DNA from: Streptomyces sp. NBC_00344
GTDB lineage: Bacteria; Actinomycetota; Actinomycetes; Streptomycetales; Streptomycetaceae
Length of the DNA: 64,000 bases
Assembly: GCF_036088315.1 (NCBI RefSeq)
Contig: NZ_CP107996.1
Location: forward strand, 5,575,001-5,639,000
Direction: 5' to 3'
Shown here: in pieces, positions 8,451 to 64,000 of the stretch
Position numbering within the stretch: the stretch's first letter is position 1
Layout: every line of letters starts with the position of its first letter
Translations under genes and position numbers: made by a program
The notes under the pieces: generated by a model
Seen by the model: only the letters and a program-made list of their open reading frames with translations
Database searches by the model: none
Told to the model about the DNA's origin: nothing

Positions 8451-9497
8451 GTGTTGGTCGACAGTCCTCCCCGACAGAGCGCGGATCCTGCCCCCGCGCC
8501 CCTCAAGCGTTCGCTGCCGCGCGCCGCCGGGCTGCTGCTGGCCCTTGCGGTGCTGCTGCTCGTCGCCGTCGCGAGCATCGCGATCGGCGCCAAGGCGGTG
8601 CCGCTGAGCGAGGTGTGGCACGGGCTGGCGCACGGCTCGGGCAGCGCGGACGATGTTCTCATCCGTGAGGTGCGGCTGCCGCGCACGGTGCTCGGCCTGC
8701 TCGTAGGAGCAGCGCTGGGGGTCGCCGGAGCGGTGATGCAGGCGCTCACCCGCAACCCGCTGGCCGAGCCCGGCGTTCTCGGCGTCAACGCGGGGGCGTC
8801 CGCTGCGGTGGTCTCCGCCATCAGCTTCCTCGGGATCACATCGCTCACCGCCTACGTGTGGTTCGCGTTCGCCGGGGCCGCCGTGGTCTCGGTGGTCGTC
8901 TACGCGCTCAGCGGTGGACGCAGCGCGAATCCGGTGCGGCTCGCGCTCGCGGGCACGGCGGTCACCTTCGCGATGTTCGGGTATGTCAACGCCGTACAGC
9001 TGCTGGACTCGGCCGCGCTGGACAAACTGCGCTTCTGGACCGTCGGTTCGCTGGCCTCGGCCACCGGGGCCACCGTCTCCCAGGTGTGGCCGTTCATCGC
9101 GGTGGGGCTCGCCGTGTCGATGCTGATCGGCAGGCCGCTGAACGCGATGGCGATGGGCGACGACACCGCGAGGGCCCTGGGCGCCCATCTGACCCGTACC
9201 CGGGTGCTGGCGATGATCGCCGTCACGCTGCTCTGCGGGGCCGCGACCGCGGCGTGCGGCCCGATCGTCTTCATCGGGCTGATGGTGCCGCACATCGTCC
9301 GGGCCTTCACCGGTCCTGATATGCGCTGGACCCTGCCGTACGCCGCGGTGCTCTCACCGGTCCTGCTGCTCGGCGCCGATGTGGTGGGCCGGGTCGTGGC
9401 CCGCCCCGCCGAACTCCAGGTGGGCATTGTGACCGCGCTCATCGGAGGGCCCGTCTTCATCTTTCTCGTACGCCGCCGGAGGATGGCCCAGCTGTGA
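8451..9497 (+). CDS. Iron-siderophore ABC transporter permease (FecCD family), first subunit
   Basis: The 348-residue membrane protein has about nine or ten hydrophobic helices. Family blocks are REVRLPRTVLGLLVGAALG, AGAVMQALTRNPLAEPGVLG, and the late ACGPIVFIGLMVPHIVR, which contacts the ATPase. The GTG start has no Shine-Dalgarno and lies 4 nt after the iron box, so a leaderless transcript is likely. It overlaps the next permease by 4 nt (GTGA). It should form a heterodimeric channel with that permease for Fe(III)-siderophore import. No substrate-binding lipoprotein gene is present in the cluster. Confidence 0.92.
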   Translation: MLVDSPPRQSADPAPAPLKRSLPRAAGLLLALAVLLLVAVASIAIGAKAVPLSEVWHGLAHGSGSADDVLIREVRLPRTVLGLLVGAALGVAGAVMQALTRNPLAEPGVLGVNAGASAAVVSAISFLGITSLTAYVWFAFAGAAVVSVVVYALSGGRSANPVRLALAGTAVTFAMFGYVNAVQLLDSAALDKLRFWTVGSLASATGATVSQVWPFIAVGLAVSMLIGRPLNAMAMGDDTARALGAHLTRTRVLAMIAVTLLCGAATAACGPIVFIGLMVPHIVRAFTGPDMRWTLPYAAVLSPVLLLGADVVGRVVARPAELQVGIVTALIGGPVFIFLVRRRRMAQL

Positions 9498-10531
9498 AAG
9501 TGATGCATGCGATACGCACCCCCGGCGGGCTCTCCCTGCGGGTGGACATCAGGGCCGTGGTCGTCGCGCTGCTGCTGGCGGTGGTCGCGCTGGCGAGCGG
9601 TGTCGTCCTCATCGGGAGCGGTGACTATCCGATCGCGCCCGGCGATGTGGTCCGCACCCTCTTCGGCGGAGGCACCGCCGGGCAGGAGTTCATCGTCAAC
9701 GACCTGCGGCTGCCGAGAGCCCTTGTGGGGCTGTTCGTCGGAGCGGCGCTCGGTATCGGGGGCGCGGTCTTCCAGTCCATCTCCCGCAATCCGCTGGGCA
9801 GTCCGGACGTGATCGGCTTCGGGCAGGGAGCGAGTGTCGGGGCGCTGACGGTGATCGTGCTCTTCCACGGAGGAGCCACCGCCGTGGCCGGCGGCGCCGT
9901 CGTGGGAGGTCTGGTGACCGGTGTCGCGGTGTACACCCTCGCGTGGAAGCGCGGGGTGCACGGCTACCGGCTGGTGCTGGTGGGTATCGGCGCGGCCGCG
10001 ATGCTCACCGCGTGCAACAGCTATCTCCTCACCAAGGCCGATCTTGTCGACGCCACCCGCGCCGTGGTCTGGATGACAGGTTCGCTCGACGGACGCGACT
10101 GGGGCCAGTTCCGGCCACTGCTGGTGACCTGCGTGGTCCTGGTACCGGTGGTTCTCGGATACGGCCGCAATCTGCGAATGCTGGACATGGGAGACGACGC
10201 GGCCCACGCCCTGGGAGTGCGGGTCGAGCGGACCCGGCTGCTGCTGGTGCTCGCCGCGGTGCTGCTCACCGCGGTGGCCACCGCCGCCGCAGGGCCGATC
10301 GCCTTCGTGGCGTTGAGCGCGCCCCAGCTGGCCCGCAGGCTCACCCGTTCGCCGGGCGCCAACCTCCTCCCCTCGGCGTTCATGGGGGCCACCCTGCTGC
10401 TCGTCGCCGACTGGATCGCCCAGCGGGCCTTCGGCGACCGGCAGTTGCCGGTGGGAGTGGTGACCGGCGTGATCGGTGGCTGCTACCTGCTGTGGCTGCT
10501 GGTCTCCGAACGCAAGGCAGGACGGATCTGA
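9494..10531 (+). CDS. Iron-siderophore ABC transporter permease (FecCD family), second subunit
   Basis: The 345-residue polytopic membrane protein is a paralogue of the gene before it. It carries NDLRLPRALVGLFVGAALG, GGAVFQSISRNPLGSPDVIG and AAGPIAFVALSAPQLARRL. Its GTG overlaps the preceding stop by 4 nt and its own TGA overlaps the ATPase start (TGATG), so the three genes are translationally coupled. It is the second half of the channel of an iron-chelate importer. Confidence 0.92.
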   Translation: MKVMHAIRTPGGLSLRVDIRAVVVALLLAVVALASGVVLIGSGDYPIAPGDVVRTLFGGGTAGQEFIVNDLRLPRALVGLFVGAALGIGGAVFQSISRNPLGSPDVIGFGQGASVGALTVIVLFHGGATAVAGGAVVGGLVTGVAVYTLAWKRGVHGYRLVLVGIGAAAMLTACNSYLLTKADLVDATRAVVWMTGSLDGRDWGQFRPLLVTCVVLVPVVLGYGRNLRMLDMGDDAAHALGVRVERTRLLLVLAAVLLTAVATAAAGPIAFVALSAPQLARRLTRSPGANLLPSAFMGATLLLVADWIAQRAFGDRQLPVGVVTGVIGGCYLLWLLVSERKAGRI

Positions 10532-59322: not shown

Positions 59323-59517
59323 CCCGGCGCGGCGCCACGCCCGTCCCGCGAGGCCCGGCCGAAAGGCGCCCTTGCGCCTGATGGCCGGTTCGCGCTGTAC
59401 TCCCGGACAGCACTTGTCAGGGGCACGGCGGAAACGGAACCCGCTTTGTCTCTTTATATGTGCATCATGGGTCCCCCCACCCTGTCGGACCCTCGATTCC
59501 CTTCGGGAGGAACTGAA

Positions 59518-60417
59518 GTGAGGATCAAGCGCACCACCCCCCATAGCGGATCTGCGAGACGCGCACGGCTGATCGCCGTGACGTCCGGCCTGATCGTCGC
59601 GGCCGCGCTGACCGTTCCCACCGCTCATGCCGAACCGACGCCGACGTACAGCGCCAACCAACTGGCAGCCGTGAGCAGCGCCGTGCAGACCGCCGATGTC
59701 GCAGGCACCGCCTGGTACACCGACAAGGAGACCGGCACGGTCATCGTCACGGCGGACAGCTCGGTCTCCAAGGCCGAGATCTCCCGGCTCAAGCAGCGGG
59801 CCGGGACCAACGCCGGCGCGGTACGCGTGGAGCGCACCGCAGGCACGTTCCGAGAGCTCCTCTCGGGCGGCGACCCCATCTACACCTCTCAGTGGCGCTG
59901 CTCGGTGGGCTTCAACGTCCGCAGCGGCTCGACCTATTACTTCCTCACCGCAGGCCACTGCACCGAGGGCTCCCCGGCCTGGTACACGAACTCGTCGGAC
60001 ACCACCAGCATCGGCCCGACGACAGGCACCAGCTTCCCGGGCAATGACTACGGCATCGTGAAGTACAGCAACACCTCGCTCGCCCACCCGGGCACCGTCG
60101 GCGGCCAGGACATCACCAGCTCGGGCAACCCCACCGTGGGGCAGACCGTGACCCGGACCGGCTCCACCAGCGGCACCCACAGCGGCAAGGTCACCGCACT
60201 CAACGCCACCGTCAACTACGGCGGCGGCGACGTGGTGTCCGGACTCATCCAGACCACCGTCTGCGCCGAGCCCGGTGACAGCGGCGGCCCGCTCTACGCG
60301 GCGTCCAAGGCACTCGGCCTCACCTCGGGCGGCAGCGGCGACTGCACCTCGGGTGGCACGACCTTCTTCCAGCCCGTCACCGAAGCACTCAGCGCCTACG
60401 GAGTCAGCGTCTACTGA
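59518..60417 (+). CDS. Streptogrisin-type secreted serine protease (S1 family)
   Basis: The product has 299 residues from the GTG at 59518, GGGAGG 7 nt upstream. A Tat- or Sec-like signal ([20 protein letters not shown], cut after AHA near residue 38) is followed by an about 77-residue propeptide. The mature enzyme begins near [20 protein letters not shown]. The triad is His in LTAGHCTEG, Asp in GNDYGIVKY and Ser in [11 protein letters not shown]. The end [17 protein letters not shown] is that of streptogrisin B. Four Cys form two disulfides. It is a single gene with a strong terminator. Confidence 0.95.
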
Positions 60418-60559: not shown

Positions 60560-61039
60560 ATGAAGCGCATCGGAGTGACCGGTCACCGCAGCATTCCGCC
60601 TGAGGCCTTCGTCCATGTGAGGGATGCCCTGCGTACCCTGTTGTGCGGCCATATGGACTCCATGGAGGCACTCTCCAGCCTGGCAGCCGGTGCGGACCAG
60701 CTGTTCGCGGGAATAGCTCTCGAATGCGGTGCCGAGCTGACGGCGGTCATCCCCAGCGGCGACTACGAACTGGGCTTCGACGACGAGGACGAACTCGCCG
60801 GCTACCGATGGCTCAGAAGCCGGGCCACCCAGGAGATCCGGATGGGCTTCACCCACTCGACTGATGAGGCCTACTTCGCCGCGGGCGCCTACATCGCCGA
60901 CAACTGCGACCGTCTGGTGGCGGTCTGGGACGGCCGCCCCGCCCGCGGACGCGGCGGTACCGGCGACATCGTGAGCTATGCCATCGGGGTGGGCAGGCCG
61001 GTCACGGTCATCTGGCGCGAGGGTGTGGAACGCCAGTAG
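60560..61039 (+). CDS. SLOG-superfamily protein
   Basis: The product has 159 residues from the ATG at 60560, with GGGGGG just upstream. A single Rossmann-like SLOG fold is seen: RIGVTGHRSIPPEAFVHVRD, ALSSLAAGADQLFAGIALEC, RLVAVWDGRPARGRGGTGDI and VSYAIGVGRPVTVIW. The GhR and GGTGD motifs are the nucleotide-binding parts. SLOG proteins are predicted to sense or make nucleotide-derived ligands, often beside SLATT membrane effectors. The SLATT-type gene is convergent and 18 nt away, which fits that pairing. Ligand unknown. Confidence 0.85.
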   Translation: MKRIGVTGHRSIPPEAFVHVRDALRTLLCGHMDSMEALSSLAAGADQLFAGIALECGAELTAVIPSGDYELGFDDEDELAGYRWLRSRATQEIRMGFTHSTDEAYFAAGAYIADNCDRLVAVWDGRPARGRGGTGDIVSYAIGVGRPVTVIWREGVERQ

Positions 61040-61057: not shown

Positions 61058-61972
61058 TCAACTGCCGTGCCGCGCGAGCCACTCGGTGTACTGGGGTGAA
61101 ACGATCCGCTCGGTCTCGTACACCACGGACGACCACTGCTTCTCGGTGAGACGGCTCTCCATCTCGATGTGCAGCGCCTTCAGCTTCTCCTCCACCAGCG
61201 CATGGGCCGAGATCATCGGCTGATGGCGGCGGAACTCGCTCCAGGCGACTCCGGAGGCGGCGGCGGCCGAAAGCACCCCGGCGGCGTCGGTGTTCTCGGT
61301 GACCGAGAAGGCCCGCAGCACCCCGAGGATCAATGCGACCAGGGTGAGCAGGGCGAATGCACTGGACCACAGTGCGGTGGCCACCCTCGACACCTCCTGC
61401 TTGCGGCGGTACCAGTTGCGCTGCTCGATCAGCCTGTCCCGTACGTAGGTCTCCTTGCGGACCCCGAACGACTTGGCCCTCAGCTGACGCATCTGAGGGG
61501 TGATCAGGCTGCCCTCGGGGGACTCGAGGACCCAGCCCACGGTCCGCAACTCCTGGAGCTGTTCCTCGAGCCGAGTGGTGAACACCCGGTCCACATCCGG
61601 GGATTCGGCATCGAACGGAGCACCGTGGACCGCGTAGCGCCAGCACATCGACTTGACGAAGTCCGCCGCGGACCGGTTGAGCTGCCACTGCGACTTCGCC
61701 TTGCGCCGGGAGGTGCTGAAGGTCAGCAGCAGCACACCGGCATACGCTGCCGCACTCAGTACGCCGGCCGCCTCGAGGCCGCCGCCCAGCTCCCCCCGCC
61801 ACGGAACAGCGGCCAGCGCGGCCCCGACGACCAGCAGGACCAGTTGAGCCCGGGTGGAGCCCACGGCCTCGCCCTGCCGGGCGATGGCGAGTGAGTCGGC
61901 ACGATGGAACAACGCGGGCAGATCGGCATTCCGGAAGACCATGCTCTGTTCAGGACCGGGAAACGCCGTCAC
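61058..61972 (-). CDS. SLATT/DUF4231-type membrane effector-like protein
   Basis: The product has 304 residues from a GTG at 61972. Two pairs of membrane helices are seen: TRAQLVLLVVGAALAAVPW with AAGVLSAAAYAGVLLLTF, and VATALWSSAFALLTLVALIL with DAAGVLSAAAASGVAW. A cytosolic helical region separates them (YVRDRLIEQRNWYRRKQEVS). SLATT proteins are predicted to form pores that are opened by SLOG or other sensors in conflict systems. It converges with the SLOG gene and is divergent from the FxsA precursor gene. Confidence 0.83.
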   Translation of the reverse strand: MTAFPGPEQSMVFRNADLPALFHRADSLAIARQGEAVGSTRAQLVLLVVGAALAAVPWRGELGGGLEAAGVLSAAAYAGVLLLTFSTSRRKAKSQWQLNRSAADFVKSMCWRYAVHGAPFDAESPDVDRVFTTRLEEQLQELRTVGWVLESPEGSLITPQMRQLRAKSFGVRKETYVRDRLIEQRNWYRRKQEVSRVATALWSSAFALLTLVALILGVLRAFSVTENTDAAGVLSAAAASGVAWSEFRRHQPMISAHALVEEKLKALHIEMESRLTEKQWSSVVYETERIVSPQYTEWLARHGS

Positions 61973-62096: not shown

Positions 62097-62124
62097 TTGC
62101 CTTCGGTCTGCATGAGAGTAAAGT
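62097..62124 (+). promoter_or_regulatory. Possible promoter of the fxsA-fxsB unit
   Basis: A -35-like TTGCCT (62097-62102) and a -10-like TAAAGT (62119-62124) are 16 bp apart, about 80 nt before the precursor start. A second ttgcct lies 21 bp further up. The opposite strand must carry the SLATT promoter. It is a sequence guess. Confidence 0.45.
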
Positions 62125-62205
62125 CGACCCGCCGACACTGCAACGGTGCATGTATCGGCAGCCCATCCCATGTCCGGAAAGCATCCCTCAAGGACGGTCG
62201 CCACC

Positions 62206-62367
62206 ATGTCCGTAAATTCAACCGCCTTCGCCGCCGAGAAGAAGCCCAGTGTCCCGCTGGCCGAGATCGACGTACGCAGTGCCGAGGCTGCCAGGCAGCT
62301 CGACCGGGTTCTCGCCCCGTCAACCCGCCGCTCGACGAGGACTTCCACGTTCAACTCGGCGCTCTAG
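62206..62367 (+). CDS. fxsA: FxsA-type RiPP precursor peptide (FxSxx-COOH)
   Basis: The product has 53 residues if it starts at ATG 62206 (AAGGA 11 nt upstream); two further in-frame ATGs at 62170 and 62146 lack ribosome sites. The last five residues are FNSAL, exactly the F-x-S-x-x carboxyl end that defines the FxSxx-COOH precursors. The leader part is LAEIDVRSAEAARQLDRVLA, with Arg/Ser/Thr before the core. The FxsB-type radical SAM protein 52 nt downstream should join Phe to a residue two positions on and so form a small cyclophane ring. Function of the product is unknown. Confidence 0.88.
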   Translation: MSVNSTAFAAEKKPSVPLAEIDVRSAEAARQLDRVLAPSTRRSTRTSTFNSAL

Positions 62368-62373
62368 TCCCCT

Positions 62374-62400
62374 TTCCGGCAAAGCCAGGCATTGCCGGAA
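62374..62400 (+). terminator. Intercistronic hairpin between precursor and maturase
   Basis: A perfect 9-bp stem (ttccggcaa at 62374-62382 with ttgccggaa at 62392-62400) and a 9-nt loop stand between fxsA and fxsB. There is no T tract. Such elements partly stop or stabilise transcripts, so more precursor than enzyme is made. Confidence 0.65.
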
Positions 62401-62419
62401 GCCGCACTAGACTGGCGGA

Positions 62420-64000
62420 ATGACAGGACCCCTGGTCCCCTTCCGCGAGATTGTCCTCAAGGTCCACAGCCGGTGCGATCTCGCCTGTGACCATTGCTAT
62501 ATCTACGAACACGCAGATCAGAGCTGGCGCACTCGCCCCAAAGCAATCTCTGACGAGGCGATTCACTGGACGGCTCTGCGACTGGCGGAGCATGCCAGGA
62601 CCCATGCCCTGCCCTCCGTGTCAGTGATCCTGCACGGAGGGGAGCCACTGCTGGCGGGCCCTGCGCGACTGCGCCGCATCTGTGAGGAGCTCACCGCGGC
62701 CCTGACGGGCATCGCGGAGCTCGACCTCCGGATCCATACCAACGGGCTGCAGCTCAGCCCGCGCTATCTCGATCTTTTCGCTGAGTTCAACGTCCGGGTC
62801 GGTATCTCCCTCGACGGGGACCGGGAGTCCAACGACCGCCACCGCCGCTTCGCCGACGGCCGCAGCAGCCATCCGCTCGTGCTCAGGGCCGTGGAGCTGC
62901 TGCGTCAGGAGCAGTACGCACATCTCGACCTCGGTCTGCTCTGCACCATCGATGTGCAGAACGACCCCGTCGCCGTATACGACGCGCTGACCGCACTCGG
63001 CCCGCCGCGTATCGACTTCCTGCTTCCGCATGCCACCTGGGACGCGCCTCCGCCCCGGCCCAGCGGTTCGCCGACCGCCTATGCCGACTGGATCCTGCGG
63101 GTCTTCGACCGCTGGGACTCCCGGGGGCGGCAGGTCCCGGTCCGGCTCTTCGAATCCGTCCTCTCCACGCTGAGCGGTGGTCCCAGCCTCACCGAGTCGC
63201 TGGGGCTCGCCCCCACCGACCTCGTCGTCGTCGAGACCGACGGGACCCTGGAACAGGTCGATTCCCTCAAGAGCGCCTATGAGGGCGCGGCCTTCACCGG
63301 ATTCGACGTCTTCACCCACGCCTTCGACGAGGTCGCGGCCCACCCCGGGGTGCGGGCCCGCCAGCTGGGCCTCGAAGGTGTCAGCGCGAAGTGCCGGCAG
63401 TGCCCCGTCGTACGTTCCTGCGGAGGCGGCCTCTACACCCACCGCTACCGTGCAGGATCCTTCGGCAACGAGAGCGTCTACTGCGCCGATCTGGAAGCGC
63501 TGGTGCACGGCATCGAGAGGCGTACCGCCGCCGCGACCACCTCGCCCGCCATCGCCGACCCGGCGGAGCTGAGCGCGGCGCAGCTGTCGCTGACCCGCAC
63601 ACTGCTGGCCACTCTGCACGCCGAGCTGGGCGGCCGCGGGGGTGAACGATGGGCCGAGGCATGGGAGCTGGCGGGCCTCGTGGACCAGCGGCCCGACGGC
63701 ATGTTCGACCTGGTGATCGGCCACCCCTACGCCCGCAGCTGGCTGTTCAGTTCCCTGGAGGCCGTGCAGCGGGAGTGCTTCGGGCCGTCGGGCCGGCTGG
63801 CCTCGTACGTCGCGGCGGCAGCTGTGCGCGGCGGCCAGGACATCCCGGTCACCGTCGACTACCACGACGGACTGCTCCACCTGCCCACCCTGGGAGCGTT
63901 ACGGCTGGCCGCGCCCGGAGCGAACGGCCGTGCCGAGGTACGCAGCGCGGAGAAGGGCTTCCTGGTCCGGACAGCGGGCACCGAAAGGCGGGTTGCCCGC
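62420..64000 (+). CDS. fxsB: FxsB-type radical SAM/SPASM cyclophane maturase (5' part)
   Basis: The visible part has 527 codons and is open at the window edge. The start MTGPLVPFREIVLKVHSRCD runs into the radical SAM motif CDLACDHC (CX3CX2C) within VHSRCDLACDHCYIYEHADQ. HGGEPLLAGPARLRR and GISLDGDRESNDRHRRF follow. The SPASM-type cluster part is KCRQCPVVRSCGGGLYTHRY and SVYCADL at residues about 323-357. The rest is helical and typical of FxsB proteins, which may continue into an HExxH domain beyond the window. Codon 494 (63899-63901) is TTA, read by the bldA tRNA. It would crosslink the FxsA core using SAM and iron-sulfur clusters. Confidence 0.93.
   Translation, partial: MTGPLVPFREIVLKVHSRCDLACDHCYIYEHADQSWRTRPKAISDEAIHWTALRLAEHARTHALPSVSVILHGGEPLLAGPARLRRICEELTAALTGIAELDLRIHTNGLQLSPRYLDLFAEFNVRVGISLDGDRESNDRHRRFADGRSSHPLVLRAVELLRQEQYAHLDLGLLCTIDVQNDPVAVYDALTALGPPRIDFLLPHATWDAPPPRPSGSPTAYADWILRVFDRWDSRGRQVPVRLFESVLSTLSGGPSLTESLGLAPTDLVVVETDGTLEQVDSLKSAYEGAAFTGFDVFTHAFDEVAAHPGVRARQLGLEGVSAKCRQCPVVRSCGGGLYTHRYRAGSFGNESVYCADLEALVHGIERRTAAATTSPAIADPAELSAAQLSLTRTLLATLHAELGGRGGERWAEAWELAGLVDQRPDGMFDLVIGHPYARSWLFSSLEAVQRECFGPSGRLASYVAAAAVRGGQDIPVTVDYHDGLLHLPTLGALRLAAPGANGRAEVRSAEKGFLVRTAGTERRVAR

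What the first reader, a model, noticed from the sequence alone, without database searches (positions are those of the whole stretch)
62206..64000. Cyclophane RiPP locus of the FxSxx type at the right edge
The 53-residue precursor ends in FNSAL and the maturase has CX3CX2C, SPASM cysteines and the FxsB leader pattern. FxSxx-COOH systems are established as a radical-SAM RiPP family, but their product function is not. Here the core is short and the leader carries unusual Thr/Ser/Arg before it. Later members (FxsC TIR-like, FxsT NTPase-TPR) are expected to the right.
Basis: partly seen in the sequence, partly recalled or inferred. Interest (0 to 1): 0.9.

Follow-up and report, generated by a model that had tools for sequence, protein, structure and literature searches.

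The report
Cyclophane peptide locus with SLOG-SLATT pair
A Streptomyces-type gene cluster that makes a small ring-bearing peptide next to immune-type sensor genes is mostly inherited together with a predicted nucleotide-sensor gene and a predicted membrane-effector gene, which makes an immune role for this puzzling peptide family testable.

Summary
The observation and the family assignment are right. The 53-residue precursor (FNSAL end) and the maturase score over the curated cut-offs of TIGR04268 and TIGR04269, and the genome beyond the window edge holds FxsC and FxsT. It is a complete member of a known family, of the 'standalone' type already described among conflict systems (PMC7159879, section 24).

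Just upstream lie a SLOG-fold gene and a SLATT membrane-effector gene. In 295 genus genomes this SLATT type (full length, 40% identity or more) occurs in 85 of 109 FxsC-bearing and 1 of 186 other genomes; the exception carries a truncated fxs locus. The pair stays with fxs through an inversion and in divergent loci, and one genome keeps a deletion scar spanning both. Away from the usual chromosomal site it is kept in only 6 of 13 loci. FxsC is a TIR fold that keeps its glutamate (102 of 103 loci); the TIR of FxsT does not. Best model: FxsT senses, FxsC makes an NAD-derived signal, SLOG/SLATT respond; these signalling steps are inferred. An AAC(3)-type gene sits in the locus in 35 of 62.

The parts
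60560..61039 (+). SLOG-fold protein, 159 aa (YpsA/DprA/LOG type), predicted nucleotide or ADP-ribose-derivative sensor or enzyme
61058..61972 (-). SLATT protein, 304 aa, SLATT_3 + SLATT_1 fused; predicted membrane effector, three hydrophobic peaks (about 36-63, 64-88, 194-227)
   Evidence: PF18184 131 bits, PF18181 113 bits; NF033610, NF033634; hydropathy; co-occurs with FxsC, 85 of 109 vs 1 of 186 genomes.
62097..62124 (+). promoter-like element TTGCCT-16-TAAAGT before fxsA
   Evidence: AGTAAAGTC block conserved at 85% or more in an alignment of 80 upstream regions; read by eye, function inferred.
62136..62148 (.). CACTGCAACGGTG imperfect inverted repeat downstream of the promoter-like element, possible operator or leader hairpin
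   Evidence: Exact in 4 of the 7 upstream regions printed, with one change in the other 3; not tested further.
62190..62197 (+). ribosome-binding-like AAGGACGG before fxsA
   Evidence: AGGACGG block conserved at 85% or more in 80 upstream regions.
62206..62367 (+). fxsA, FxSxx-COOH precursor, 53 aa, ending ...STFNSAL
   Evidence: TIGR04268 37.6 bits, cut-off 28.
62420..64000 (+). fxsBH, cyclophane-forming radical SAM/SPASM maturase with inactivated hydroxylase-like extension; continues to window-equivalent 64627. Outside the window (L002 coordinate + 57000): AAC(3)-like 64620-65387, fxsC 65407-66792, fxsT 66761-70723
   Evidence: TIGR04269 577 bits; NF040587 399 bits; PF02522 235 bits; NF040588 237 and TIGR04276 247 bits; NF040586 1035 bits; coordinates.

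Best explanation
This is a complete FxSxx-COOH cyclophane RiPP system of the standalone actinobacterial type, and its working unit is larger than FxsA-B-C-T: in this lineage it includes a SLOG gene and a SLATT membrane-effector gene, and an AAC(3)-type acetyltransferase gene sits in the operon. Mechanism proposed: FxsBH links Phe and Ser of the F-x-S core into a three-residue cyclophane. The modified peptide stays in the cell, since no exporter or leader peptidase is in the operon, and acts as ligand or keeper of FxsT, a STAND/NB-ARC-TPR sensor with a TIR and a MinD-like domain that both look inactive. On disturbance (for example phage infection) FxsT releases or assembles FxsC, whose TIR domain keeps the glutamate and makes an NAD+-derived signal or depletes NAD+. 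The SLOG protein binds or processes that signal and the SLATT protein permeabilises the membrane. Shown here: gene content, folds, motif retention and loss, co-occurrence. Inferred: cyclisation in this strain, peptide retention, FxsC activity, signal identity, SLOG/SLATT response, phage trigger.
Against: The pair is bound partly to one site: of 62 named loci, 49 of 49 with the usual chromosomal flanks have SLATT but only 6 of 13 without them. It is absent from 24 of 109 FxsC+ genomes, so FxsC can occur without it. In G057, G548, G571:C26 and G649:C384 (a 5.6 kb contig) the pair stands without fxs beside it. Six FxsC- genomes have distant SLATT relatives at 28-32% identity. Counts are not independent of ancestry, and the FxsC+ class mixes fxs loci with FxsC fused to SAV_2336-type proteins. 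The equivalence of FxsC E121 with the FxsT residue rests on a non-significant profile match (probability 0.3%, E 0.18) plus a shared motif. The FxsC model is middling (pLDDT 72.6, pTM 0.48) and Foldseek alone gave E 2.5e-3 at best. No PADLOC match for FxsC or this SLATT. An ABC-2-like membrane gene (PF12698 29.1 bits, just under its cut-off 31.6) lies 3.3 kb beyond fxsT and could serve export. No activity was measured.
Confidence: 0.42

Rival explanations
1. The cyclophane peptide is itself the toxin or effector (the reading of Kaur et al. [quoted passage not shown] SLOG-SLATT is a second, additive effector arm.
For: PMC7159879 section 24. FxsA and FxsB are kept in L077 and L140 although no FxsC match was found in those genomes, so the peptide may act alone.
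Against: The peptide end is conserved in the main clade (mostly FNSAL, FSSAL, FNSSL), unlike a diversifying toxin, though divergent loci have FQSSI, FDSCL or FTSSI; no exporter gene within the operon.
Confidence: 0.22
2. The FxS peptide is a developmental or hormone-like signal with the TPR protein as receptor, and SLOG-SLATT is a separate defence pair that shares the same insertion site.
For: Patchy and mostly in this genus (FxsC over cut-off in 23 of 61 genus genomes; 5 of 396 genomes of the phylum draw); TPR domains often bind peptides (general knowledge); SLATT in 49 of 49 loci at the usual site but 6 of 13 elsewhere; pair without fxs at that site in G057 and G548.
Against: The pair also adjoins fxs at other sites and in divergent loci and is nearly absent from genomes without FxsC; FxsC is shared with VMAP-type proteins.
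Confidence: 0.22
3. FxsC acts by NAD+ depletion on its own; SLOG degrades the product and SLATT regulates, so the pair restrains rather than executes.
For: SLOG includes clades predicted to process ADP-ribose derivatives (PMC9503650, passages); 24 of 109 FxsC+ genomes lack the pair.
Against: SLATT is predicted to be an effector in PMC9503650 and PMC7159879 (passages).
Confidence: 0.13

Closest known systems
FxSxx-COOH RiPP system (TIGR04268/04269/04276, NF040588, NF040586), standalone peptide-processing type of Kaur et al. 2020 (PMC7159879)
   Same: All four named components over curated cut-offs; FxsT has the MinD-like domain and AP-ATPase-TPR form that section 24 describes.
   Different: That section does not mention SLOG-SLATT or an AAC(3)-type gene (its figures and supplements were not seen); FxsB here is the FxsBH form with lost HExxH; no separate metallopeptidase gene among the genes called in the operon.
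Triceptide 3-CyFE maturases (MscB; ChlB, PDB 9gm3)
   Same: Residues 12-365 align to ChlB 11-364 (E 1.9e-78); MscB forms Phe C4-Ser Cbeta bonds (PMC11002830, passages), the bond expected for F-x-S.
   Different: Here the maturase carries an inactivated hydroxylase-like extension and sits with TIR/STAND genes. That MscB belongs to the FxsB family is recalled, not tested.
Thoeris (TIR signal + SLOG-containing effector; description recalled)
   Different: SLOG is a separate small protein, the effector candidate is SLATT, the upstream sensor is a STAND-TPR protein; no PADLOC Thoeris hit among six proteins.
FrbF / AAC(3) acetyltransferases
   Same: Closest solved sequence FrbF 3sma, E 4.1e-46; RS.HPQTS and FHLAEY motifs conserved.
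   Different: Below the AAC(3) NCBIfam cut-offs (best 142.9 vs 270 bits); substrate unknown, aminoglycoside resistance not indicated.

Membership tests
FxSxx-COOH system | precursor matching TIGR04268 over cut-off | tested here: met
   37.6 vs 28 bits
FxSxx-COOH system | FxsB maturase TIGR04269 with CX3CX2C and SPASM cysteines | tested here: met
   577 vs 370 bits; cysteines invariant
FxSxx-COOH system | FxsC (NF040588 + TIGR04276) | tested here: met
   237 vs 130 and 247 vs 55 bits
FxSxx-COOH system | FxsT NTPase-TPR (NF040586) | tested here: met
   1035 vs 300 bits
FxSxx-COOH system | Phe-Ser cyclophane in the product | not testable with these tools
   needs mass spectrometry and NMR
aKG-HExxH peptide beta-hydroxylase | intact HExxH | tested here: not met
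   SAVRQ at the site (first H in 6 of 99 loci); NF040587 'inactivated' model 399 vs 225 bits
SLATT effector | PF18184 / PF18181 over gathering score | tested here: met
   131 and 113 vs 26.3 bits
SLOG superfamily | SLOG/YpsA/DprA fold | tested here: met
TIR NADase (FxsC) | TIR fold with the motif glutamate | tested here: met
TIR NADase (FxsC) | NAD+ cleavage | not testable with these tools
   needs an assay
Thoeris | recognised ThsA/ThsB proteins | tested here: not met
   no Thoeris model among the PADLOC hits of six proteins
VMAP-ternary system | VMAP, MoxR and vWA genes beside it | tested here: not met
   none among the genes called at window-equivalent 58507-72684, each of which got another Pfam or NCBIfam name or the SLOG fold; genes further out not tested for it
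aminoglycoside 3-N-acetyltransferase (resistance equivalog) | NF033082 over cut-off | tested here: not met
   142.9 vs 270 bits

The most novel reading that the evidence does not exclude
A ribosomal cyclophane peptide is an internal ligand of a bacterial NLR-like switch: FxsT reads the state of the F-x-S cyclophane, licenses the FxsC TIR enzyme, and the NAD-derived product is relayed by a SLOG sensor to a SLATT pore. This would be a RiPP used as a guarded self-signal in innate immunity.
Probability: 0.25. Interest if true: 0.88.

Novelty: new variant of a known kind. Interest (0 to 1): 0.55.

Why it matters
FxSxx peptides are widely annotated and their ring chemistry is understood from relatives, but their function is open. 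Tying them by co-occurrence to a SLOG-SLATT pair, and finding that only one of the two TIR domains keeps its glutamate, turns 'function unknown' into an ordered pathway with named knock-outs. Ten literature searches (open-licence PMC only, listings seen, three papers opened in passages and PMC7159879 section 24 in full) showed no paper that links FxSxx systems to SLOG-SLATT; for the AAC(3)-type gene only bears on it (two papers listed, neither opened). Figures and supplements of PMC7159879, where such genes might be drawn, were not seen.

Tried and rejected
AAC supplied in trans: the five genus genomes whose fxs locus lacks the AAC gene (G006, G019, G052, G053, G056) carry a relative at 49-53% elsewhere, which looked like in-trans supply. 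Those loci, and the one from G029, share 14-19.5 kb of tblastx similarity with each other and with G031; G029 and G031 have no FxsC match. It is a core paralogue. Rejected.

Alpha/beta-hydrolase as an fxs member: it is in 62 of 62 named loci with FxsC and FxsT, also in those without the usual flanks, but it stays at the site in genomes without the island (G022, G030, G032). Left undecided, not counted in the unit.

HEGVA (FxsBH 682-686) first looked like the decayed HExxH; the alignment puts the site at SAVRQ (638-642).

FxsC by sequence against the PDB: no match up to E 1. Foldseek for FxsC: none at E 0.001 or better. FxsC-FxsT TIR profile match not significant. Paper searches 'FxsB + radical SAM' and 'cyclophane + TIR domain': no papers.

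Mended on checking: the split by chromosomal site (49 of 49 vs 6 of 13) was added; for it I lowered the main explanation from 0.45 to 0.42 and raised the shared-site rival from 0.20 to 0.22.

Dropped before counts: five genomes with FxsC below cut-off, and nine genomes with partial or 28-32% SLATT matches (three FxsC+, of which G623 and G610 proved to have divergent fxs beside the SLATT, and six FxsC-); with these nine, any SLATT match at E 1e-30 or better is in 88 FxsC+ and 7 FxsC- genomes of 95. In one search, 15 of 80 named loci shorter than 20 kb, and 3 more without both FxsC and FxsT. L158, counted as SLATT+, has only a 32% match on the other side.

Full report
The window is G000:C1:5575001-5639000 of a 7.06 Mb genome, unnamed; of the 80 closest named FxsB loci 78 are titled Streptomyces, one [Kitasatospora] papulosa and one Saccharothrix, so a Streptomyces is likely. 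The fxs locus lies across the right edge; L002 gives the rest, window coordinate = L002 + 57000.

Anatomy. Rightward: fxsA 62206-62367; 52 bp gap; fxsBH 62420-64627; an AAC(3)-like gene 64620-65387 that overlaps the end of fxsBH by 8 bases; 19 bp gap; fxsC 65407-66792; fxsT 66761-70723, overlapping fxsC (starts are the first in frame, not proven). Left of fxsA, head to head with it, a SLATT gene 61058-61972 (-), and convergent with that a SLOG gene 60560-61039 (+). Flanks: alpha-lytic/trypsin-type proteases on both sides, an alpha/beta hydrolase (PF00561), an SPFH protein (PF01145), an ABC-2-like membrane gene just under the Pfam cut-off and, further right, DNA polymerase III alpha-type and Y-family polymerase genes. 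Families: FxsA TIGR04268, FxsB TIGR04269 + NF040587, FxsC NF040588 + TIGR04276, FxsT NF040586 + NF047398, SLATT PF18184 + PF18181, AAC PF02522, all over curated cut-offs; the AAC(3) equivalog NF033082 is not reached.

Maturase. The radical-SAM part (12-365) aligns with ChlB (PDB 9gm3, E 1.9e-78) and the extension (384-701) with a solved chain named 'Radical SAM core domain-containing protein' (22nu, E 7.6e-20). The HExxH of that extension is lost here (SAVRQ); the first His is present in 6 of 99 loci, among them L045 (HEFQH) and L061 (HEVQH), which also hit the active-type model TIGR04267. So F-x-S cyclisation is expected here, beta-hydroxylation is not. For this bond type, MscB makes Phe C4-Ser Cbeta (PMC11002830, passages).

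Does the pair belong to fxs? (i) 61 genus genomes: SLATT in 18 of 23 with FxsC over cut-off and 0 of 38 others; G022 (FxsC+) has a partial hit. The whole family PF18184 gives one sub-threshold match (G015) among the 38. SLOG copies over 50% identical and near full length are in the same 18 genomes; G005 has a 61-residue remnant (66%); distant SLOG paralogues (28-44%) occur widely and say nothing. (ii) 295 genomes: 85 of 109 vs 1 of 186 (Fisher p 1.4e-50, which ignores ancestry); 76 of 88 hits within 10 kb of a listed FxsC, the FxsC place list being cut by the tool. (iii) Of the 12 hits not near a listed FxsC, 9 were fetched (G057, G028) earlier: G662 SLOG-SLATT-FxsA-FxsB with most of the extension missing; G563 a full fxs locus whose best FxsC match starts at residue 87; G663 and G529:C276 FxsB beside the pair; L165 and L167 divergent FxsB-C-T beside SLATT; G548, G571:C26 and G649:C384 (short contig) the pair or its contig without fxs; G057 the pair without fxs, its fxs 467 kb away; G028 FxsA and FxsB on the same short contig. 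G619 was not fetched. (iv) Empty sites: G022, G030 and G032 have the trypsin-type gene and hydrolase adjacent with neither pair nor fxs; G005 keeps a SLOG fragment, an FxsT C-terminal fragment and a broken hydrolase, the scar of a deletion through the whole unit. (v) Arrangement: pair upstream, or, in 16 of 80 named loci, SLATT co-directional after fxsT, as expected if the fxs block was inverted between the same flanks. (vi) On the tree of 97 FxsB proteins SLATT presence needs 8 changes (shuffled mean 16.9, 0 of 500 as low); L121, L142 and L157 are short contigs whose absence says little. (vii) In 62 named loci with FxsC and FxsT: SLATT 55, SLOG 54, AAC 35, hydrolase 62. Against: by site, SLATT is in 49 of 49 loci that have any of the usual flank genes but in 6 of 13 without (L123, L149, L152, L154, L156, L158). 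So part of the association is vertical descent at one site, and in some lineages fxs does without the pair.

No genome with this SLATT type lacked FxsC except G662. The two loci with FxsA-FxsB in genomes without an FxsC match (L077/G054, L140/G456) lack SLATT in the locus, G054 also genome-wide; L132, which lacks FxsC in the locus, lacks the pair too, though its genome has an FxsC match elsewhere; L137 has the pair and FxsB but FxsC only elsewhere in the genome. This leans towards SLATT being tied to the TIR arm rather than to the peptide. The reverse does not hold: 24 of 109 FxsC+ genomes lack it.

AAC(3)-like gene. In 35 of 62 named loci; 9 changes on the FxsB tree, absent from a 28-row clade and some others. 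Motifs RS.HPQTS and FHLAEY are conserved. Nearest solved relative FrbF, an acyltransferase of phosphonate biosynthesis (recalled). Acetylation of the released peptide is a guess.

Function. PMC7159879 (section 24 read in full) already places standalone FxSxx systems, with an AP-ATPase-TPR protein and inactive MinD-like domain, among conflict systems, with the peptide as toxin or amplifying signal. My addition is the co-occurring SLOG-SLATT pair, the division between the two TIR domains, FxsBH inactivation in this lineage and the AAC gene. The chain FxsT to FxsC to SLOG to SLATT is inference; co-occurrence is shown.

Verdict. The finding as stated is correct and known in kind; its extended form is a new variant of a known kind, of solid but not exceptional interest until the signalling is tested.

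Noticed in passing
L074 (G005:C1:1247000-1266900), about 9236-10438: Deletion scar: fragments of SLOG and FxsT C-terminus plus a broken hydrolase where the island stands in relatives.
   Followed up: partly
L049 5944-10488, L054 7369-9978, L057 5958-10187: FxsC at the C-terminal part of SAV_2336-type proteins, in L049 next to a VMAP-M2 protein, with no FxsB hit in the fetched region.
   Followed up: partly
L061 (G262:C1:1042000-1061900): A genome of another family of the class has two adjacent FxsC_Nterm matches; similar doublets in G499, G611, G616, G636, G642.
   Followed up: no
L077 10502-12778 and L140: FxsA-FxsBH pairs in genomes without an FxsC match.
   Followed up: partly
window 62097-62197: Strongly conserved fxsA upstream region: AGTAAAGTC block, CACTGCAACGGTG-like repeat, AGGACGG.
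   Followed up: partly
L068-L073, L079: An AAC(3)-type paralogue at a conserved core locus of the genus, independent of fxs.
   Followed up: yes
window 59446-60417 and window-equivalent 72813-73997: Two alpha-lytic/trypsin-type proteases flank the island on both sides.
   Followed up: partly
window-equivalent 74063-75082 (-): ABC-2-like membrane gene, PF12698 29.1 bits (cut-off 31.6), 3.3 kb beyond fxsT.
   Followed up: no
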